From: Arthonia radiata
Taxonomy: Eukaryota > Ascomycota > Arthoniomycetes > Arthoniales > Arthoniaceae
Reading direction: 5' to 3'
Assembly: GCA_002989075.1 (NCBI GenBank)
Contig: PSQN01000014.1
Span: forward strand, 1-64,000
DNA: 64,000 nucleotides
The translations under genes were made by a program, and so were the position numbers. This document shows, piece after piece, positions 1 through 17,696 of the stretch (its first letter is position 1; every line of letters starts with the position of its first letter). Below the pieces are notes generated by a model. That model was not told where the DNA came from. It worked only from the letters and a program-made list of their open reading frames with translations, and did not search any database.

Positions 1-101
1 ACCCTAACCCTAACCCTAACCCTAACCCTAACCCTAACCCTAACCCTAACCCTAACCCTAACCCTAACCCTAACCCTAACCCTAACCCTAACCCTAACCC
101 T
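1..101. repeat. Telomere repeat array
   Basis: An uninterrupted run of the hexamer CCCTAA fills about the first 100 bases, roughly 16 copies. It ends abruptly at the T-rich sequence that starts the repeat block. Read on the other strand this is TTAGGG, the usual telomere unit of filamentous ascomycetes. The window therefore starts at a true chromosome end, with no subtelomeric spacer between the telomere and the first transposon fossil. Confidence 0.98.
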
Positions 102-2880
102 TTAATATACTTCCTATTAGAAGCAGAAAATTAAGCACTCTGCGACTATCTTAACAAGAACCTTAAGAAAGGATTTATTTAAAAATTAATATTACTAGCC
201 GGATACCCGATACTCTTCGTACTAAAGAAGAATAGTAAACTACGACTTTACGTAAATTATAGGTAATTGAACAGAATAACTATTAAAAACCGATATCCGC
301 TACTACGTATCAACAAAATTATAGATCGGTTACATAACGCGCAATAGTTTACTAAGTTTAACCTACGAGGAGCCTACAACTTAATCTATATAAAAGAAGA
401 TAAAGAATGAAAGACGGCCTTCTGTACTAGACACAGACTTTTTGAGTATTGCGTTATATCTTTTGAGCTAATAAACGTACTAGCATTATTTTAGAAACTA
501 ATTAACAACACACTTAGCGATTATCTAGACATATTTATAACTACTTATCTAAACAATATCCTAGTATATAGCCGTATACTAAAAGAATATAAGAAATATA
601 TTAAGAAGGTATTAAAAAGATTTATGTATGCCGATTTATAAATTAATATCGAGAAAACCTAGTTTTACCAACAATCTGTTGAATTTCTTAGATTTATAAT
701 TACCGAGTATAGTCTTTAAATAAAAGATTTAAAGATCTAATCTATCCTAATCTAGTCTATATTAAAGAATATAAAATAATTGCAACAGTTTCTTAGTTTT
801 ACTAACTACTATAGACGATAGATATCTAACTTTAACCGAATTATAGCACCGCTGTCTTAACAAATAAAATAATCGGTAGGATTCTTCTAGACGTAGAAGG
901 AACAATTAGTATTTAAAGAGCTTAAAGAAGCTTTTAAAATTGAGCCCGTACTAGCAATATTCGATCCCAATCTACCAATTATTATAGAAATAGACGCGTT
1001 AGACTATACGATTAGAGTATATATAAGTTAAAACAATAAGGAAAGAAAGCTTAGATCAGTAGCTTTCTACTTAAGAAAGATATTACCCATAAAATAGAAC
1101 TATAATATTTACAATAAAGAGCTTTTAGCTATTATAGCAGCATTCAAGATATAACAAGCTTACCTAAAAGGAGCAAACTATATAATTATAATATACATAG
1201 ACTATAAAAATCTAACTTACTTTACAATAACAAAGAAACTTAACCGCAGACAAGTTAAATAGTTAGAGACTATAGCTCTATACGACTTTATTATTACCTA
1301 TAAAAAGAGTTCTAAGAACGATAGAGCCGATGCTCTAAGTTAACGACTAGATTACCTTAATAATAAGGAACACGTCGAATACGCAATATTCTGAGAATAT
1401 AATAATAAGATTAGATACAATTAATTAGCTATAATAACAGAGTTTGTTATTGAACCGGACAGCTGAATCCTAGATATCCTAAACAATTCTAAAACCTACC
1501 AGAAAAACGAGAAACGATACCTAAGACTAACTAAAAACAATAAGGGCTATTATAAATTTTAAGGCAAAATCTACGTTTTGAGGAATCTAATCCGACACAT
1601 TATTAGTAACTTTTACGATAACCTAACAAAGAGACACAAGAGTATCGATAACACTGTTAAAAAGGTTATACAAACCTACTATATCCCGAGAATTTAATAT
1701 TACGTCGAAAATTATATCTAAGAATATAACGTATGCGCAAGAACTAAGTACCCGAGGTATTTACTATACGGTAAGCTACAACTACTAGAGATACCCGAAA
1801 GACTATAATATACAGTCTTACTAAACTTTATTACTAAGTTACTAACATTTAAGAATCTACTTACAGAAGTAGCATACAACGCTATTCTAGTTATATACAA
1901 CAAACTAATAAAATACGCATACTTCGTATCTTATAAGGAAGCTAGTAATTTAGAACAATTAGCGTATATATTCCTTTAGATTATCTTAGCAAACTATAGT
2001 TAACCGCAAAGAATTATCTTAGACAGAGATTAAAAATTTGTCTTACGATTTTAAATATCTTTAATACAACAGCTAGAGACAAAACAAAAAATATTAACGT
2101 TATTCTATTTACAAACAGACGGACAAACAGAACAAATAAATTAAACACTAGAATAGTATCTCTAGGTATACATTAACTACTAGTAGAACGACTAGGTATA
2201 GTTACTACTAGTAGCGTAAGTAGCGTACAACGATACAAAGAACAATATAATTAAGATAACTTCGTTCTACGCCTTATATAGCTATTACCCTCTTTAAAGA
2301 AGACAACTATAAAATACTACAGAGAACGAATTAGCTATACGAATAGCTACGAACATAAAATACCTATACTAGCAGTTAAAGTCTAACAGCGAGTTTATTA
2401 CCGAACGAACGAGAAAATAGTATAACAAGTTAAGAACAACTCTAAATATAAGCATAAAAGAGAAGAAAAGAGCTTACTTACTTATAAGAAACTTAAAAAC
2501 TATTAGATTAAGCAAAAAACTTAACTATATTAAGATAAGACCGTTTAAAATCTTACAGCAATTAAGATCTATAATATTTAAACTTAAACTCCCAAAGATA
2601 ATAAAAATATATTCTATATTCTACGTAGCGCTATTAGAATCAGCCTACTCTCGAGAAGTAGAACGACTCAACCTAGAAATCTTTTCTAACAATTAAGAAC
2701 CCGAGTATAAGGTCAAAACGATTCGAGCTTATAGACAATACCGAGGCAAATAACAGTATCTTATAAAGTAGAAAGAATATCTTAAATACAAAAATTAATA
2801 GGAACTAGAATGAAACCTAATTAACTATAAAGACACTATTTAACAATATTAAGACTAAAATATTAATCAGTCGTAATAGT
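102..2880 (+). mobile_element. Ty3/Gypsy LTR retrotransposon fossil, 5'-truncated, chromodomain type
   Basis: Translated pieces on the plus strand match a Gypsy pol in the usual order: reverse transcriptase (about 210-720), RNase H (about 940-1,340), integrase with its zinc-binding start (about 1,560-2,480) and a C-terminal chromodomain-like piece (about 2,700-2,860). The order and the chromodomain point to the chromovirus branch. The 5' LTR, gag and protease are absent; the copy starts near the reverse transcriptase, right beside the telomere. It is broken throughout by very many changes with a RIP-like bias and cannot be active. Age cannot be dated because no LTR pair is available. Confidence 0.85.
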
Positions 2881-3694
2881 ACTAATACCCTAATCTACTA
2901 TCTAGTGCGCCTCGTTAATATCTAGGTTATCTATAAACAAACTAGCCTACTATATTAGTAGTCTACTACCTAACTCTAGGTATAGATTATTACGAAAATC
3001 TATACTTAGGCTACTCAATATATCTATAATATTACTACCGAACATAGCCGCTAGCCATTCTTTTTTAAACAATATATTATTCTAATTTATTTTGTTCTGC
3101 GTCTAAATATACAACCTTTCGAGCTCCTTCTTTAAATCTATAACCGCCGCTTTAATAACTTTGTGCTATCTTTTCGCTGCACGAACGACTTTCTTCTCTT
3201 TCGCTAAACGCTTGCGTTGCCTCTAAAGGGCATTCGATACCTATAAGTACTAAGAACGGATACTTTAAGCTAAAATAAGTTAAACTTACATTAAAAATAG
3301 ACGTAGAATAGAAACTAACCATCCTTTAACGACGAGCGAACGTTATACGACTTTTTATTACGAGTATACATAAAATACGATACCTTTCTAGACTTTAGAA
3401 TACACTTCTTACCTAAATAAGCGTAGCGGAAATATAGAGGCATCTCTCGACTACAGACTTCGACAAGAACAGTATTAATCTCGAGCGCTTTGTTAGCGTT
3501 AGGGACTTTCTTAACTTTAGGTATAACGACTTATAGAACTAGATCTACTATAGAGGAACGATAAGGTTTTAATATCTCTAGGGCCGTTGAGGACAACTAG
3601 CCTTGAAGAGGGAATCTAGTCTCAGTCCGCTTAGACCCTTGGGCGCCCGTACGTATTTACTACGCTATTTCTCTTTAGAAAGTAGACGTCTAAA
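2881..3694. repeat. Unassigned AT-rich repeat segment
   Basis: About 800 bases of decayed repeat lie between the Gypsy fossil and the inverted-repeat unit. On the minus strand, near 3,060-3,240, there is a piece rich in Lys, Glu and Arg that looks like a coiled coil. Near 3,340-3,480 another minus-strand piece is basic with spaced Cys and Tyr, reminiscent of the small Cys-rich proteins found in many fungal repeats. I cannot assign it to a family. It may include the lost 3' LTR region of the Gypsy element. Confidence 0.4.
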
Positions 3695-3701
3695 GGGTCT
3701 A

Positions 3702-3715
3702 AGGCCCGATAGCAG
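3702..3715 (+). repeat. Left terminal inverted repeat
   Basis: The 14 bases AGGCCCGATAGCAG are the exact reverse complement of 9,915-9,928. The seven bases just outside also pair except for transitions. It is followed by a T-rich run and, at 3,792, the ATG of the helicase remnant. Confidence 0.75.
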
Positions 3716-3791
3716 CTTTTTTAGTCTTATTAACCAAACATTATTCTAATTGTTAAAATTTAATCAAAAAAGTGTGTCAACTAAGTTAACA

Positions 3792-5720
3792 ATGCCTCGC
3801 GTTTCTAAGTATACAAAAATTCCGATCAAAAAGGCTTAAGAACTGCCTTAGTTGCGTACAGCAACGTATATATACGTTAAGAACGCTAATACAGCGTCTG
3901 CTACTAATACTATTTAACTAACCCGCCCGTCTTCTGCCTTCGTATAGTTAATTAAACAGCTGTTTAGTATTTAATAGGTAAGAGTTAAGTAGCTTAAAGC
4001 TCTAGAGACATTAAAAGCCTAGCAAGACGTTATATTAATCGCAAAATATAGGTTTAGGAAGATACTTATCTTTTAAGTATTTAGCCTACTTTGCGTACTA
4101 AACTTAAGCATTATACTAATTATTAGCCTCTTAAAGGCAATTAAGAATAATTAGTGTAAGGCGATACAGTAGCTTTAAGGAGTACGGCCGTTTATATTGA
4201 ATAGTTTAACTAACAGCAAGAAGAGCCATTAACAGATTGCAGATAGAGAGTATATATACGTATAGCTTAGTTCTAAAATTGTATTAAGTAATGTCTTCTT
4301 TCAAGACGTAATTAAGCAGCCTTCTTTCTGTAAAGCTGTCTGCCTTCTTACTATTAATAAACTGTATGTTTGTAGCAAATAGAGAGAGTCCTTTTGTTCT
4401 AAGTTTCTTAAACTTAGTACGCTTCGACGTTCGTTGCTAGACTACGTTGTTCTCTTTATAACTACGGCTACACTCTTAATTTTAATGTTTTATAAGTTAA
4501 AGCTTAAGCTTGCGTTTAAGGACAGTATATATGCTATTCGAACGTCAATTAATTTAAGCAATGTTAATCTATCCTTTAAGAGGAAGTCTAATGCAAGCCT
4601 TTTAACTATTTAGCGGCGCGTTATTTAACTACTGTACAACATAGCTTAACAACGAGCTGACAAGCGACTATCAAAGATAATTATTTATGTACAGAAGGTG
4701 TTAGAAGTCATTGTTCTTGTTGCTCGAATCTAAGCGTAGTTAATATAGCTTAGATTGCTAGTTTAGTTAATAAGTAGTATTGTCCGGCTATATTATAGCT
4801 AACTATAGAACGATACGCGGAAGGCTATTTTAACCGCATTTAACAGCAATTAATGCTTAGTAATCTGTACAACGGTTGTATTTAACTTTAGCGTCAACCC
4901 TCGCGACGTTAACTATATTTTCTAAGTTGAACGAGATAGCCTAGTTAATATTCAGTAGAAGCTCGGTTGGGTAGGCTGTAACGGGCATATAGGCTACTTC
5001 TATGCGGTTGCTGAGACTAAGTTAGTTGGACCGCGGCTTAAAGACCTTAATAAACAGCAGCGGCAGAAGTTAATAAAACCCTACAAGTAGCAACGCGGCC
5101 AGTTAAGTCTAATCATTAAGGTCTTTTAAGATACTTTAAGCGATACTAATAGCGAGTAATTGAGCTAAGATAACGAGTAGGTTAATTTAACTAATTAACA
5201 ACAGCCCTTAAAGTTAGCAAAGAACGATTTTATATTTCGACAGCGGCTTTTTGAGGCTAATTCTTAGGAATACTGGGTCTAGAATGGCTTCTGCGCACGT
5301 ATAGGTATGCTAGGCTACTTTAACGAAAGGCTTTATTAAGAGCAGTGTAATTTAATATGTTCTTATTACAATTCTCGGCTACTTAAGCTTCTAAAAGTAT
5401 ACGATATATAGTACTGTAATGTATCCGCTAATATGCGAGCTTAATTTATTAAATAGCTTAAGGTTTGGCGGCAGACGGTTCTCGTCCGGCTACAGGGGTC
5501 TGTATTTAACCTCGTTAAAGGTCTATATAACGAGCTAATGCTTCCTAAAAAGCAGATAAATAGTCTAGCATTATTAATCTATGCTGTTGCTAAAGGTTAG
5601 TTTAACGGCTAGGCGTAGGTAATTAAGTACGGTACTAAAGTCTCTGCTATTACGAAATATATTCTTGCTTAGAGATTATATTAACTACTATTAACGTCTG
5701 CTATTTAACCTACTTAGGTA
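3792..5720 (+). pseudogene. RecQ-family DNA helicase remnant (telomere-linked-helicase-like)
   Basis: The frame opened by the ATG at 3,792 carries the superfamily-2 helicase motifs in order. A P-loop-like piece lies near 4,045-4,075; motif Ia (LLKAIKNN, RecQ family SPLKALxxDQ) near 4,130; the RecQ SPE-like piece near 4,270; the region of motif II with the following FxSKFLKLSxLR near 4,340-4,430; motif III (TTATL) near 4,470. A motif IV/V stretch (about 4,700-4,900) contains RKAILTAFN and CTTVVFNFSVN. Motif VI lies near 4,953-4,990 (KLGWVGCNGHIGYFYAVA). Motif VI is exactly in frame with the ATG (387 codons on). A Cys-containing region follows to about 5,720. Many codons have been turned into stops and key Gly and Arg codons changed by C-to-T or G-to-A, so it is dead. 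RecQ helicases linked to telomeres are known in fungi; here the copy lies 3.7 kb from the telomere. The 3' end is approximate. Confidence 0.75.
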
Positions 5721-6149
5721 TCTTAACCCCTATTAACCCTAGTACAGCCTGTTCTACGCGAGCTACAATCTTTATCGCTAAATATATAAGCAAACAACGA
5801 GGTCTAGACTAAGTAGAGAACGCTAGTACGCTCTGTATTTAAGGGATTAAGTAGCGAACGCTTGTTAAAACAATAAAGGCGCTGCTAGTTAATGCTAGCT
5901 ATAATTATCGTTAAAGCTTTAACTCTATACAGCTGCCTTATAAGTACTATAGCTTAATTAAGTAGACGCTAATAAGGCAGTATATAGCGTATCTACTTGG
6001 CCGTATAGCTACTTATACTTAAACGTTTTCTATCCTTGCTCGTCTTTCTTTTAATATTCTTCTTTACTATCTTAATCTTTCTTTAACTTTTAAACTCTTC
6101 TTTTAATCTCTATAAACCTTCTTTAACATTAACATTAATATTAATATAG

Positions 6150-9100
6150 CCGCACAAGTATAGCTGTTCGCCGATCGTACTGCTTAGGACGCTTTTTGTA
6201 AGTTTACTATACGTTAAAACTTAGAAACTTAACATTAAGCTAACACTATACAGTTAACGTAGACGTTCCGCAGACCATAGCTCGTATTTATAGAATCTAC
6301 GTCTATATTTAAGACGACAACGGCCCGTATTCTAGTATCCCTAGTCGCATTACTTAGGCTATTTAATAGCGCGTCCTTACCCTTTCTACTATTAACAACA
6401 ACGTTCGACTCTAGATTAACGTTAGTGTAGCTCCTTCTGTCCGTTTTAACTTAAACAACTATACATTTAAGTCTTTTATAATTTAAGCTACTAACGAATC
6501 TATTATCTATATATATATTCGCTGTCAACAGAACCTAGGCAAGTTTATAACAGAAAGAATCGCTCTTATCTACCGACGCTACTACGGTTCTTATACTGCC
6601 TCTAGCTATCCTACCTAGTATAGTCTTAATACTAGTACTAGCCCTGCTTCTAGTAGTCCTAGTTCTGCTATCTCTACTGCCCCGATTACTTCTATTGCTC
6701 CTATTGCTCCTAGTCCTTAAGGTATGTTAACAATTTAACCTTGCTTCAACTTAATACTAATATATATTAAAATAGCTTTCGCTTAACTATCTGCTAGCCC
6801 TATTATAGTTATTTCTCCTCTAATTCCGCCTATTTAGCGTTAGTAAGGTGCCTACCTACAGTCCTAGTACGAACTGTAGCCGAGTCCGGTTAATATCCGT
6901 ATCTTAGTTAACCTAACTATTGTTAGCAATATTAACTCTAGCGAAGAAGGTAAGTTAACGTAGTCTAACAACGATGCTTAGGTGTAGATTCAGTAGGCTC
7001 GGCGTAGGATCGACTTCTTTAAGTAGCAGCTTAACAATAGTAACTGTCTTTATTCTTAGGTTAGGCGGAACAATAACGATTTTAACAATCGTACTGCTTA
7101 ATATATAGTTAATAGATAGTTAATAAGTACTTAACGCCTGTATAGAGCTACTTTTACTCTAATAATATAATTAATGTATATATTGCTGTATACCTGCTTA
7201 TCTTTATCTTTAATACCTTGTTTGAAAGTACTGTTTAAATTCTATTAAAACTTATGCTATAAGCTATATTGCAGCGGATCTAAAGTAGACTCAACGTTCT
7301 AAAAGCTTTGCTTGGTATACTGAAAGAACTTACGGTCCTTTATAGTATCTTTGTCTACCTGTTGAGCAAGGTTCTTAAGTATAGCTTCGTTCTTAATATA
7401 AGCTAGCTTAAGACGTATTAAGAGTCTATTAAACTACGTAATATTATCGCTAAGACGCTAGAGACCTAGTTAAATGTAGTCTAAAGGCTTATTTAAGACT
7501 ATTGAATTAGCCTCTAAACTATCCCGTACTGCCAGCAAGGATCTAATAGCTACAAGAAAGATATCCTAGTCTCTACGCGTAAGAGAATGTATATTAGACC
7601 GGTATAGTAACAGCTGCTTTATAAGCCGCTCGTTGAGCGGATTAAGAAATAGCTTCTTAATAGTTCTATACTCTGTAACGTCTTTAAAGGTCTAGCGGCT
7701 ATTACGTCTGTTGAGCTAGATCTACTTAATAAGACCGTTAAAGTGCTTATTTATAAGATTAACCGGGAAGAAGCTATTAACACGCCCTTCGATATTAATA
7801 AGTATTACTAAAAGTAGGAGGTCTCGTACAAGCGAATTAACATACCTAGTAGTAAAGATATAAAGAAAGTAAAGCAATTTAATCGTATAGTTGTGCGCGC
7901 CGGCGCCGTAGAAGAGAACGTAGTAGCGGCGTATATATTTAATAATTATCTTAACGTCGCTATACTTAATAGCCTACTGTAGGTTAAAAAACGTTCCGGC
8001 GTCCTAAAAGAAGTCTATAAAGTACTAGAGCTTTTAGTTAGTACCTTTGCTACGGACTTAGTTATCGATATACTTTACCGTCAATTTAATTAAATACTTA
8101 AACCGCTTAACTCTAAGGCTTTAAATTAAGCTTAAGATTTACTATATTGTTATTAATTAATTAAGCTCTTAATTAACTAGCTAGTACGCAAGAAATCGTC
8201 TATTTTAGGTGTCCGTTAAGAAGTCCTTAAGCGCCCGGTAGTTATTCCTCTTACTAAAGACGCCTTTACGTTTAAGCTTCTCTCGAACCTACTGTAGGCG
8301 TCCGAGAGAGTTAAAGGTTAAATCTAGGCCGTAATATGCCTTTATTAGGTTGCGAGCAAGGTTTATTTATAAATAAAAGAGGCTAAGCATTGAAAATAGA
8401 TATCAGAACTGGTCCCGCTTATAAACGTTCTCGGTATATATTGTAACAATTAAACGGACTCGCTAAAGAGTCTTTTAGTTTCTAAAGACAATATAGACAG
8501 GCTCGGTATTAAAATGCTCGTTAAGAAAGTTGAGCATTTTATTGATCTTATATTGAATCTTAATGTTTCTCTTATTTATACTCTTGTTAATGTTTATTGG
8601 AAGAAGTAGAAGGAAATTAAACTTAAAAGGAGGCAGGACGTTAACTAGTTGACGGTAGATTGCAACGTCTTTAATATTACTTAAAAGGTCGTTAATAGCC
8701 TTAAAAAACCCTACGTACAGCGTCTTAAAGCCCTAAGCGGTAAGGCGGTAGGTCGTTTATACTAATACGTCGAAGGAGCTTATAACGGCTATTATACTTA
8801 GCGGCGTCTTCTTATAGATTATCTGCTAGGTCGGTAGATAGGTTAGAAGGTCCTTTAGCTGGTATAAAAGCGTAGTCGTCCTAGAGTATATACTCTTTTA
8901 AAGCCTTAATATTTAGTACGTTAATTTAGTTAATTGCTTTAAGTCATCGTAGCTATAGATAATAAGCCTACTCTGTGTAACAAGTTAACGCGGTACTTAA
9001 TTAGCTCGAGCTTTAAAACCCTAGTAGTTCTCTATATATATCTTATAGCTTAAGCATACTTCAAGGCGGTTAAATTATATTATTAAGTCTATAGATACTC

Positions 9101-9650
9101 TATAATTGTATATCGAAAGTCTAAGAATACTAGGAAGAAGATTGCACTTGCGTAGTTAAGATATATACAATAGTATTAAAAGAACAAGGTATATACGCTA
9201 GTAGAGGGATAGGACGTACTCTTTGCTTTAAGGTTGATTAACACGCTTCTACCGCGACAAACTAAGTAGCAGTTGAGTCAAGTTTAAAGCCTCTCGGTAG
9301 TACGTCTGCTTAATGTCTATACAGCTGGGAACTACGTTAAGCTTCTAAACTTAATTAATCTTGTACTTCCTAAACATTAGCTATCTTAAAAGCCTTGCTG
9401 CTTCTTTCTAAACCTTTGCTAGGAACAATATAGCCTCTGTTGACTTATATTGAAGCTTAAGACAATCAAGTAGGTCTTAATTGTTGCGTAAGGCCTCCGT
9501 AAACTTACTAAAGAATGCTCAATAACTAGGTTAATTTAAGTATATAAGAGATAAAAGAGCGGTATAAAAGGTTATACGCTGCTATTAAAGCTCGAAAAGA
9601 AGCTAATTAACCTTCTTCTCTTCGTTTCTTGTTAATTGTCGCTTATATTT
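6150..9650 (-). pseudogene. DUF6589-type protein remnant
   Basis: Read on the minus strand, 7,980 down to 7,620 gives a stretch that matches the conserved core of fungal DUF6589 proteins. It has a helix with YVLFYGAGAHNYT, a leucine-rich helix, then INIEGRVNSFFPVNLINKHF, where the family has LVNLxGxxGxxxxxDLxxEHxN. Upstream pieces (9,600-8,000) and downstream low-complexity Ser/Thr/Arg-rich pieces (to about 6,150) read in the same direction, with interruptions. Family members are large proteins of unknown function, abundant and repeated in fungal genomes. The gene converges on the RecQ remnant and both lie inside the inverted repeats. It is dead, with many RIP-like stops. Both ends are approximate. 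Confidence 0.6.
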
Positions 9651-9914
9651 AAGTTCTTCTTGTTTAATTTATTCTTCCCTATTATAAAGTTGTTGAATAC
9701 GTAATAATATATTATATACGCTCTTTAATGACCCTGTACGGCCTATTTTACTGTTAGAGAAGAAAAGAAAAAAAAGGGCTCTAGATCTTGAGATACTCTT
9801 TCTACTATAGTTTTTTTTAGATTAATACCTGTTAATTTGGCTATAAAATTCTATACCGGCGAAGACGAGTTTTGGGTATAAAAAAATACTAAGAAATACA
9901 AAACTCCGTCAAGA

Positions 9915-9928
9915 CTGCTATCGGGCCT
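9915..9928 (-). repeat. Right terminal inverted repeat
   Basis: CTGCTATCGGGCCT is the exact reverse complement of 3,702-3,715. The next bases outward (CAGGCCT) pair with the left flank apart from transitions. The left copy carries the T and A variants, as expected if RIP hit it harder. Confidence 0.75.
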
Positions 9929-9935
9929 CAGGCCT

Positions 9936-12384
9936 GTAGAGCGAGTATTTCCTTATCGGGTAATATATCAGCCGAGCGCATAGGCCTAAGTAAACTAAGG
10001 CTAGAGAGGACCTTATATTACGATCTTACTATATTAGGCTAGTATAGGGCTGAGCGCAGCTAGCCTCATTAGAGCATTATACAGCATACCCGATAACTCC
10101 GATATAGCGATATCGGCAACGTCGCTATATCGCAATAGGATCCCGACCACGCGACAAAGGAAGTATCGAAACCGTCGGACACAGAGAAACATACCTTTGT
10201 ACCTTAGACTATATAGCTAGACTAATAGCCGACCTTAGGATAGACTTTAGTCTATTAACTTAATATCTGAATATAAGTTCCTTAACCCTATTTAGGTAAT
10301 GTACTTTACCTTCTATCTACTTTAGTTAAGCCCCTCTTACCTTTAGTAATCTATTTCGCCTCTCCTATCTTAAAGTCTCTAGCACACGAGACAACCACTA
10401 CTAAGGTCGATAAGTATACAAGGTAAGTAAGCCTTAGTTCGGTTCTCCCAGCGACCGGCGTTATAGTAGTACTAATTTATATAAGTTCTTTATCGCGCTC
10501 TTTATTCTTACTACTAAAGATAGCTTATAGAGTATTTATTCTATAAAACTATAATTATTTAGAGTACTTATATCTAGTAAAAAGGAGTTTTTTAGTTAAC
10601 TCTTTTCTTTGTCTCTTAAAATCTAAATAGTACGTAGAATAATTTCTTCTTTTATATTTATATTTAATACTTCTTAATATAGCGTATTAAAATAAAGTTA
10701 TCTATTATATTTAAATCAATTATAATATTAATACTTCTATTATTAATTATTATCTAAGTTTATAGATATATTCTATAAATAGCTAAGCTTATATAGAGCT
10801 GTATCTCTAGAAAGTTTAACTGTTAAATAGGCCAAAACTACTATTCTTAAAGTAGTTAGTTTAGTCTTTTTTCTATTAATTATATAAGTTCTAGAGTAAT
10901 ATAAATACTAATATCTATTATTAATAAATTTATTATAGAAATTCTAGTATAAGATATTTGAGCGATACCTTAATTGTTATATCTAGTTAGTTGTTTATAA
11001 TCTCTGCTTTAATAATATAACTATTACTAGTTATAACTTATTATATTTATAGATTATATATTGTTAGTTGAAGATAGTAGTTCTAGCTATATAATTCTAG
11101 ACCTCTAATAAGATAGTTTACTAGTTGTTATAAGCGTAATTAAATATATTTTAGAATATCGTTAATATCTCTGTTAGTACTTAGCTTTCAATTATAAAAG
11201 GCTATCTAGTAAAGTCTCTATATTATTTCTTTCTAATAAATCAGAGTTTTTTCTTTCTAGTTAGTATTATTCTTAAGAGAAGATTCTATACTATTAGAAT
11301 CTATACTTTTGTCTTTAAGTTATTATTTTATCTATAATATATTATAAATACTATATTACTTAGCTTCTATAGTCTATTCTTTCTTAAATTTCTTTTAAGT
11401 CTTTAAATAAGGTAATCTAGACCGTTCTTAGATAAGATCTAGTTTTTATATTAAATCTTATTTTTAAGATACTAGTTTCTTTAGCTATTATCCTATCTCT
11501 AGTTTATTAGATTTATAGATCGTACAATTATTATTATAGTATACAGTCTAGAATAGTATTTTATATAGTATAACAATACTCTATATCTAATGCCTTAAGA
11601 TAGTACAGTCGATATTATTCTAGTTCTATAGATTCTATTATTATTGTTTTATTTGTTGTTTCTTACTAGCTAATAGTAAGATTTATAGCTAATAATTAAG
11701 TACTTTAGTAATAGCGTTAACCTTAAATATAAGTAAAGATATAACTATTAAAGACGCTAATTAAAAAGCTAGTTTAGTAATAAAGAGAGATAATAGTAGT
11801 AGATAAAATACTACTAATAGTATTAGTATAGCAGCTTTACTAGCTTTATAAACTTAAAATAATACTTTATATATATAGTACGCTCTTATAGTTATATTTT
11901 AGTTAGATACTTCTTTAGTTTATCTATAGATTTTGCTATAGAAGTAAAAGTAGATCTATATAGAGCAAAAATAAATAAGTTAGAACTAGAAAGAGAGAAG
12001 TAAAGAACGTATACGTTAAAAAAGAAGTTTTACTTACTAGTAAGACTATAGTAGAAAAAGACTTTCTATTAAAAAGTAAGTACTAAAGATTTTTGCTAGG
12101 TAGTAAAAAGTCTACTTATAAATAAAGCTTAGAATAAGTAGTTAGCTTAACTAGCTAATTAGTACTTAAATATTAATATAACTCTTAGTATACTAGTAGC
12201 GCTTTAAAGTATCTTTCTTCTATACTATAGCTATCTAACAAAGCTTAGTATTTAAGCTTTAGTAAGAGAAGTAATATATTAAATCTACTTAAGCCTATTC
12301 TTTATTTATTTACTAGATAAGTTTATATTATTATTTATTGCTTATATATAAATTATAGTATATATAGTAAGTTAAATTAGTTAA
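9936..12384. repeat. AT-rich decayed repeats, unassigned
   Basis: The segment 9,936-10,480 is less AT-rich and has no coding look; it could be a solo LTR but I could not define its ends. From 10,480 to 12,384 the sequence is extremely AT-rich. A plus-strand piece near 11,940-12,190 is Lys/Glu/Leu-rich and may be the coiled-coil part of a repeat protein. No gene, family motif or paired terminal repeat could be established. The segment is interrupted at 12,384 by the Copia element. Confidence 0.5.
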
Positions 12385-12842
12385 TGTTAGAAATTAACTA
12401 ACTAGCTAGTTAGCCGGAACCCCTAGGGGCCTAGAATATTAGATAGGTTCTACCGACTGTCTCGGTCTAGAACAAAAAGAAGCATTGTACGACCCGTTCT
12501 AGACAGTTAGCCTGTAGTCTAAGACAACACAGAATAGACTTAGAGACTAATAGTTTTAGATAGACAGAATTACTGTCTTATGCGGTAAGTTACGGGTTAT
12601 CTGGCCCCTATTAAAAGAATAGATATCTAGTAAGTCCTGTACGGGCCGCTAAACTTAGATATATAAGTTAAAATCTCTCTAGAGGATTTTAGCTAATAAG
12701 ACAGACAATATAACAATAGCTTCTCCTTACTACTAAGTATTGTACCTGTATTAAGTTTAAGTATTGTACTAGTCTTAAGCTAGTCTCGTCTTCCTACTCT
12801 TTGTAGTAGTATCCTTCTTCTTCTCTGTACCTTTTTTTAACA
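12385..12842 (+). repeat. Copia 5' LTR
   Basis: Starts TGTTAG and ends AACA. The length equals that of the 3' LTR. It is flanked outside by GTTAA and inside by the half-tRNA primer-binding site. Confidence 0.92.
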
Positions 12843-17238: not shown

Positions 17239-17696
17239 TATTGAAAATTAACCAACTAGCTGGTTAGCCGGAACCCCTAGGGGCCCAAAATATTGGACAG
17301 GTCCTACCGACTGTCTCGGTCTAGGACAAAAAGAAGCATTGTACGACCCGTTCTAGACAGCTGGCCCGTAATTTAAGACAACACAGAATATACTTAGAGA
17401 CTAATAGTTTTAGATAGATAGAATTACTGTCTTATGTAGTAAGTTACAGGTTATCTGGCCCCTATTAAAAGAACAGATATCTAGTAAGTCCTACACGGGC
17501 CGCTAGACTTAGATATATAAGCTAGAATCCCTCTAGAGGATTTTAGCTAACAAGACAGACAACATAATAACAGCTTCTCCTTGCTACTAAGTATTGTACC
17601 TGTATTAAGCCTAAGTATTGTACCAGTCTTAAGCTAGTCTCGTCTTTCTACTCTTTGTAGTAGTATCCTTCTTCTTCCCTGCACCTTTTTTTAACA
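17239..17696 (+). repeat. Copia 3' LTR
   Basis: Matches the 5' LTR along its whole 458 bases. It is preceded by a purine-rich tract and followed by GCTAA, the partner of the target-site duplication. Confidence 0.92.

What the first reader, a model, noticed from the sequence alone, without database searches (positions are those of the whole stretch)
3695..9935. Inverted-repeat unit pairing a RecQ-type helicase with a DUF6589-type protein
A perfect 14-base inverted repeat, extended by 7 bases that differ only by transitions, brackets exactly two convergent gene remnants. One has the full order of RecQ helicase motifs, the other the core of DUF6589. Telomere-linked RecQ genes and the repeated DUF6589 family are each known in fungi, but I know of no described mobile element that joins them between terminal inverted repeats. 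If real, this would give DUF6589 proteins a candidate role as the mobility protein of a helicase-bearing DNA element, and would explain how RecQ genes spread to chromosome ends.
Basis: partly seen in the sequence, partly recalled or inferred. Interest (0 to 1): 0.85.

Follow-up and report, generated by a model that had tools for sequence, protein, structure and literature searches.

The report
Helicase-carrying DNA transposon in fungus
[quoted passage not shown] many copies exist in this fungal genome, and it looks like a new family of an already described kind of transposon in which the unknown protein is probably the enzyme that moves it.

Summary
The 20-base motif has 57 hits in this genome but is not the true end. 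The element runs 3617-10003 (6387 bp), with outer inverted ends TAGYCTCAGYCCRCTCAGRCCC and a 9-bp target duplication. Five undisturbed copies (6387-6395 bp) differ almost only by transitions (542-690 against 8-15 transversions per pair), i.e. RIP. Of 23 end pairs examined, 16 have a perfect 9-bp duplication and 7 match at 6-8 of 9; the window's is the weakest. The 14 long pairs all contain both a RecQ-type helicase and DUF6589; 9 are short (473-976 bp). The window's joined flanks match 40 of 40 scored places across the joint: an empty site in a high-copy retroelement. Best reading: a transposon of the AcademH kind (described as helicase-encoding, 9-10 bp duplications) with DUF6589 as probable transposase. 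That last step is inferred: no Academ transposase could be compared and fold prediction failed. A link to chromosome ends is not supported (1 of 14 long copies). New here: the family, the DUF6589 link (not found in the papers searched), paired inverted sites in the ends, and two insertions at one 9-bp target.

The parts
3608..3616 (.). left copy of the 9-bp target-site duplication (GAGGGAATC)
   Evidence: 6 of 9 identical to 10004-10012, the 3 differences all transitions; the 6 empty sites examined read GAGGRGAYC here
3617..3638 (+). outer terminal inverted repeat, helicase side
   Evidence: 1 mismatch to TAGYCTCAGYCCRCTCAGRCCC; 77 genome hits against 3 reversed-control hits
   Evidence: its GGGTCTAAG is the inverted partner of CTTAGACCC in the outer end
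3795..5159 (+). RecQ-type helicase remnant (30 in-frame TAG/TAA stops)
   Evidence: 82% identical to the sister copy at C16:855909-857279, which matches PF00271 and RecQ-family chains
6960..8876 (-). DUF6589 protein remnant, probable transposase (37 in-frame stops)
   Evidence: 80% identical to sister copy; PF20231 core about 7593-8651, E 1.4e-25; 5 of 5 aligned copies match PF20231
9982..10003 (-). outer terminal inverted repeat, DUF6589 side
   Evidence: read from the end alignment; 5 differences from the pattern, all C to T, so it is not among the hits
10004..10012 (.). right copy of the 9-bp target-site duplication (GAGAGGACC)
101..3616 (+). host sequence of the insertion: RIP-degraded Ty3-like retroelement abutting the telomere repeat
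   Evidence: RVT_1, RT_RNaseH, Integrase_H2C2; 1920-3616 matches the 3 of 3 uninterrupted copies compared, whose fetched flanks end there
10013..10469 (+). rest of the host retroelement (3' LTR-like part) beyond the insertion
   Evidence: continuous with the left flank in uninterrupted copies

Best explanation
3617-10003 is a RIP-inactivated copy of a cut-and-paste DNA transposon of the AcademH kind. Shown: matching inverted ends, 9-bp target duplication, an empty site, many copies, both genes in the 14 long end pairs examined, and short copies that share the terminal parts. Inferred: the DUF6589 protein is a DDE-type transposase that binds the paired inverted sites in each end, cuts at the TAG...CTA termini and joins them to staggered target cuts 9 bp apart. 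The RecQ-type helicase opens DNA at the ends or target, or helps repair after transfer. Short copies were moved in trans by the same protein. The fungus then mutated the long copies by RIP; every helicase or DUF6589 match listed carries stop codons.
For: Ends: 77 hits against 3 in control. Nine-bp duplications: 16 of 23 pairs perfect, 7 at 6-8 of 9; of 240 mismatched flank combinations 1 reaches 8 and none 9. Empty site: joined 200+200-bp flanks matched across the joint at 40 of 40 scored places, gap-free in the 6 of 6 examined. Co-occurrence: 14 of 14 long pairs hold both genes. Five undisturbed copies: 542-690 transitions and 8-15 transversions per pair, 702 of 1247 transition columns in TpA context. 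Helicase is RecQ-like. Published AcademH traits: helicase and 9-10 bp duplications, fungal distribution. Paired inverted sites in 26 of 31 end sequences, 0 of 31 in control.
Against: No Academ transposase was available to compare with DUF6589. The fold prediction was useless (pLDDT 36, pTM 0.20). Three protein searches and a viral-contig scan found no relatives. The DDE triad is not shown. The helicase evidence is thin: Helicase_C over cut-off in 1 of 4 copies scanned, DEAD in none. 9-bp duplications also occur in MULE elements (recalled). The original AcademH paper was not readable. Four of 21 helicase loci have no DUF6589 match nearby, and one locus with both genes (C6:559k-562k) has no listed end within 28 kb. 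The window's own duplication is weak (6 of 9; 8 of 240 mismatched combinations do as well). One duplication (C11:989973) includes a transversion.
Confidence: 0.8

Rival explanations
1. A helicase-bearing DNA transposon of a lineage other than AcademH, such as a MULE-like element or a new superfamily whose transposase is DUF6589.
For: Only PF20231 is matched in the DUF6589 frame, and no known transposase domain. DUF6589 is not mentioned in the paper library. Its identity with Academ transposase was not tested.
Against: The combination of helicase, 9-bp duplication and fungal host is what is reported for AcademH. No MULE profile appeared.
Confidence: 0.15
2. KolobokH, the fungal Kolobok lineage with a RecQ helicase.
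For: It encodes a RecQ helicase and is reported only from fungi (PMC9587614, passages).
Against: Kolobok makes TTAA 4-bp duplications; here they are 9 bp and not TTAA at the 23 pairs examined. [quoted passage not shown] here the two genes are convergent.
Confidence: 0.01
3. Giant cargo-carrying elements: the intervals of 13-78 kb between matching ends moved as single large units.
For: Nine of the 14 long pairs are 13.5-78.5 kb apart, 7 of the 9 with perfect 9-bp duplications.
Against: The C15 interval is the 6.4-kb element split by a 7342-bp insert with 468-bp direct repeats at its ends, i.e. an LTR retroelement. The host retroelement of the window lies inside the C11:1421546 and C9:288409 intervals. 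Five compact copies of nearly equal length exist. The other six intervals were not dissected.
Confidence: 0.03
4. Telomere-linked RecQ gene family flanked by chance repeats.
For: The window copy is 3.6 kb from the contig end, which is a telomere repeat array; subtelomeric RecQ genes are reported in several fungi (PMC4522978, PMC3017866, passages).
Against: 13 of 14 long copies are at least 288 kb from a contig end, and both genes are within the ends in all 14.
Confidence: 0.01

Closest known systems
AcademH (Kojima 2020; the paper itself was not readable here, known through passages of citing papers)
   Same: DNA transposon with a helicase gene; 9-bp duplication falls within the reported 9-10 bp (PMC10045372); found in fungi including Ascomycota (PMC10799480); putative non-autonomous Academ elements reported in a fungus (PMC8290104)
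   Different: Transposase homology untested; the Pfam name DUF6589 is not linked to it in anything I could read; the gene order and end sequence of AcademH could not be compared
KolobokH
   Same: RecQ helicase carried by a fungal DNA transposon (PMC9587614)
   Different: Kolobok makes a 4-bp TTAA duplication against 9 bp here; helicase downstream of the transposase there, convergent genes here
Telomere-linked RecQ helicase repeats (for example X26 of Phaeosphaeria nodorum)
   Same: RIP-degraded RecQ-type sequence in repeats of a fungus (PMC3017866, passages)
   Different: X26 is described as sub-telomeric; this family is dispersed, has inverted ends and target duplications and carries DUF6589
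MULE / Mutator-like elements
   Same: 9-bp duplications (recalled)
   Different: No MULE domain found in the scanned frames; helicase partner

Membership tests
AcademH | helicase encoded inside the element | tested here: met
   PF00271 above cut-off in 1 of 4 copies scanned; RecQ-family chains; helicase sequence inside 14 of 14 long pairs. DEAD domain not detected
AcademH | 9 or 10 bp target-site duplication | tested here: met
   16 of 23 pairs perfect at 9 bp, 7 more at 6-8 of 9
AcademH | terminal inverted repeats | tested here: met
AcademH | Academ-type DDD/E transposase | tested here: inconclusive
   DUF6589 is the only candidate; fold prediction failed; no homologs found
KolobokH | TTAA 4-bp target duplication | tested here: not met
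   9-bp duplications, none TTAA
KolobokH | RecQ helicase | tested here: met
MULE | MULE transposase domain (PF10551) | tested here: not met
   not among matches of the scanned frames at E 0.1 or 0.01; RIP decay weakens this negative
Telomere-linked RecQ genes | confined to chromosome ends | tested here: not met
   1 of 14 long copies within 50 kb of a contig end

The most novel reading that the evidence does not exclude
DUF6589 proteins as a class are transposases of a helicase-bearing transposon lineage not covered by the named superfamilies. They act on paired inverted sites in each end and show a strong preference for particular 9-bp targets, such as the site next to the 3' LTR of a Ty3-like element.
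Probability: 0.15. Interest if true: 0.65.

Novelty: new member of a known kind. Interest (0 to 1): 0.42.

Why it matters
It gives a Pfam family of unknown function a likely job (transposase), with ends, target duplication, non-autonomous copies and an empty site to test it on. It also defines, in a RIP-affected fungal genome, a helicase transposon whose history can be read from nested insertions. If DUF6589 is confirmed as an Academ-type transposase, fungal genes annotated DUF6589 could be re-annotated as transposon-derived. It also cautions against treating every RIP-degraded RecQ sequence near a telomere as a telomere-linked gene.

Tried and rejected
AlphaFold2 on the five read-through DUF6589 copies gave pLDDT 36 and was discarded. 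Protein searches with a single DUF6589 copy, with the five-copy alignment and with the helicase returned nothing at E 0.001, 0.01 and 0.001; the database may hold few fungal proteins, which I did not test. A scan of viral contigs found no relative. Whole-genome family searches for DEAD (38 matches) and Helicase_C (83 matches) were used as a cross-check: none of the DEAD matches and only one of the Helicase_C matches (C16:856092) falls in an element copy. Paper searches: 10 of 10 used. DUF6589 was in 0 papers; the single PF20231 hit is an optics paper. The AcademH paper, a transposon review and a fungal transposon survey were asked for and are not held. Pairing C15:1307866 with 1308770 gave no duplication (2 of 9) and was replaced by the outer end 1308841 (9 of 9); a wrongly oriented C16 pair used as a check gave 2 of 9. 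Giant-element and telomere-gene readings were rejected as argued in the rivals. A possible third reading frame between the two genes (about 6240-6730, plus strand) was looked at by eye only and left open.

Of the 77 end hits, 45 are used in the 23 pairs (the 46th end is the window's right end, 5 mismatches, read from the alignment) and 32 were not resolved. Those include a related end TAGTCTCAGTTGACTCAGACCC and hits with up to 3 mismatches; some may be chance. Pairs were chosen as facing ends. C2:1136320 and C12:976526 were looked at by eye and are not in the 23.

Full report
WHAT IS THERE. The window is the first 64 kb of contig C5 of a 33.5-Mb, 16-contig assembly and starts with telomere repeats. 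The first 18 kb are AT-rich (about 26-35% GC per 2 kb) against 51-57% further in. The inverted repeat is present as reported. Alone it would be weak: 123 of 300 shuffles contain some 14-bp perfect inverted pair. But the 20-mer has 57 hits in the genome against 8 for the reversed control. Comparing the flanks of 14 pairs showed that conservation runs further out, in most of them to TAG...CTA on both sides. The outer end TAGYCTCAGYCCRCTCAGRCCC has 77 hits against 3 in control. The window element is therefore 3617-10003, 6387 bp.

COPIES. Five undisturbed copies are 6387-6395 bp long and 89-91% identical, with 542-690 transitions but only 8-15 transversions per pair. Over the five-copy alignment there are 1247 pure transition columns and 25 other differing columns; in 330 of 636 C/T columns the changed base is followed by A, and in 372 of 611 A/G columns it is preceded by T. 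The TpA/ApT ratio is 1.84-1.90 in the copies against 0.57 in 18-64 kb of the window. This is the mark of repeat-induced point mutation (RIP; identification recalled, see also PMC3017866, passages). The 36 helicase and 35 DUF6589 matches listed all contain in-frame stops. The tool gives such counts as lower bounds.

TARGET DUPLICATIONS. I examined 23 facing end pairs: 14 long and 9 short. Of the long ones, 10 of 14 have a perfect 9-bp duplication and the others match at 6, 7, 8 and 8 of 9. Of the short ones, 6 of 9 are perfect and the others match at 7, 8 and 8. The window pair is the weakest (6 of 9, three transitions); by count alone it does not single out 9 bp (6 of 11 at length 11), and the empty site carries that case. 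One pair (C11:989973) has a transversion. For the other pairs, lengths 7, 8, 10 and 11 match less well than 9; the C1:878544 and C4:668254 pairs were compared at 9 bp only. In 240 mismatched combinations of the flanks of 16 pairs, 1 reached 8, 2 reached 7 and 5 reached 6. Joining the window's flanks gives a sequence matched across the joint at 40 of 40 scored places (341 candidates, the best 40 scored); in the 6 of 6 examined, the match crosses the joint without a gap. That is the empty site.

GENES. The DUF6589 frame matches PF20231 (E 1.4e-25 in the window; 5 of 5 copies, best 7e-35). The helicase is more decayed. Helicase_C is E 0.0098 in the window and 2.1e-5 in the C16:851063 copy; of the other two copies scanned, one gives 0.0088 and one nothing. 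DEAD is not detected in the copies. Against solved structures, RecQ1, BLM, WRN, RecQ5 and bacterial RecQ are the top matches (best 4.1e-7; the first non-RecQ is at 0.039). The 14 long pairs all contain both genes. By locus (my grouping), 17 of 17 DUF6589 loci have the helicase nearby and 17 of 21 helicase loci have DUF6589. Three of those 17 are outside the 14 pairs: C2:1117k-1136k (taken as one split locus), C6:559k-562k and C9:1632k-1637k; C6:559k-562k has no listed end within 28 kb. The four helicase loci without DUF6589 (C15:1607k, C16:1459k, C6:429k, C9:1712k) each have a listed end 0.2-8 kb away. So in this genome the two genes almost always go together and nearly always with these ends.

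LARGE INTERVALS. Nine of the 14 long pairs are 13.5-78.5 kb apart. In C15 the 6.4-kb element is split by 7342 bp with 468-bp direct repeats (92.5%) at its ends, an LTR retroelement. The host retroelement of the window lies inside two other intervals (C11:1423380 and C9:317059). Later nested insertion is the simplest reading; the other six intervals were not dissected beyond a 194-bp insert seen in the C2 copy.

INSERTION SITES. In one search I compared 26 flanks held locally (not all ends) with one uninterrupted copy of the host repeat. 20 of 26 have GC 0.50-0.56. Four match the host repeat, namely both sides of the window copy and of C16:851063-857457; the two C2 flanks have GC 0.38-0.40. These two elements use the same 9-bp site of that repeat (GAGGGGACC in 4 of 6 empty sites), next to its 3' LTR-like part, in opposite orientation. 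They share no derived transversion, so they look like independent hits. Inversion in place between the ends after a duplication is an alternative.

END STRUCTURE. In each end, outer CTCAGRCCC has an inverted partner, GGGYCTGAG, about 40-56 bp further in; 26 of 31 distinct end sequences in the fetched loci match at 8-9 of 9, against 0 of 31 in the reversed control. The helicase-side end has A-T where the DUF6589-side end has G-C. Much of the rest of the agreement reflects common descent, and joint C-to-T/G-to-A changes in some ends can come from RIP. I infer paired binding sites or a stem.

COMPARISON. AcademH is reported to make 9 or 10 bp duplications and to encode a helicase (PMC10045372, passage) and to occur in Basidiomycota, Ascomycota and Mucoromycota (PMC10799480, passages). 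The primary paper was not readable. Kolobok makes TTAA duplications (PMC9587614, passages), so KolobokH is excluded. DUF6589 appears in 0 papers of the library; PF20231 appears only in an unrelated optics paper. That is the basis for saying the DUF6589 link is not in print in what I could search; Kojima's AcademH transposases may well be the same proteins under another name.

VERDICT. A real, RIP-killed, helicase-bearing DNA transposon family, most likely AcademH, with DUF6589 as its probable transposase. The transposase assignment is inference from position, co-occurrence and exclusion, not from fold or catalytic residues.

Noticed in passing
window 3608-3616 / 10004-10012 and G000:C16:851063-857457 (L042): Two elements inserted in opposite orientation at the same 9-bp site of the same retroelement family, beside its 3' LTR-like part, sharing no derived transversions: possible target hotspot.
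   Followed up: partly
window 3617-3715 and 9915-10003, and other ends: Most ends hold a 9-bp inverted pair (CTCAGRCCC ... GGGYCTGAG), 26 of 31 sequences at 8-9 of 9, with one compensatory difference between the two ends.
   Followed up: partly
G000:C12:976526 (L048): A short copy whose one end starts at the inner motif (TAGTCTGAGGCCC) and still shows a 9-bp duplication TAATTGTAC, as if the inner site served as a terminus (by eye).
   Followed up: no
G000, e.g. C2:263998, C4:1559106, C9:1005080, C12:2129455: A related end, TAGTCTCAGTTGACTCAGACCC, recurs and may mark a second family with similar termini.
   Followed up: no
window 12464-12842 and 17318-17696: Both stretches match the same 379-bp part of another locus (L082) at about 90% identity, 4.9 kb apart: possibly the LTRs of another degraded retroelement.
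   Followed up: no
G000:C4:668254-746736: Two ends 78.5 kb apart share a perfect 9-bp duplication, with both genes inside: apparently one element split by some 70 kb of later insertions; the interior was not read.
   Followed up: partly
window 6240-6730, + strand: A stretch with few stops and a Ser/Thr/Pro-rich tail between the two genes; third gene or helicase C-terminus unclear.
   Followed up: no
window 1-2700: The telomere repeat runs straight into a truncated Ty3-like polyprotein gene.
   Followed up: partly
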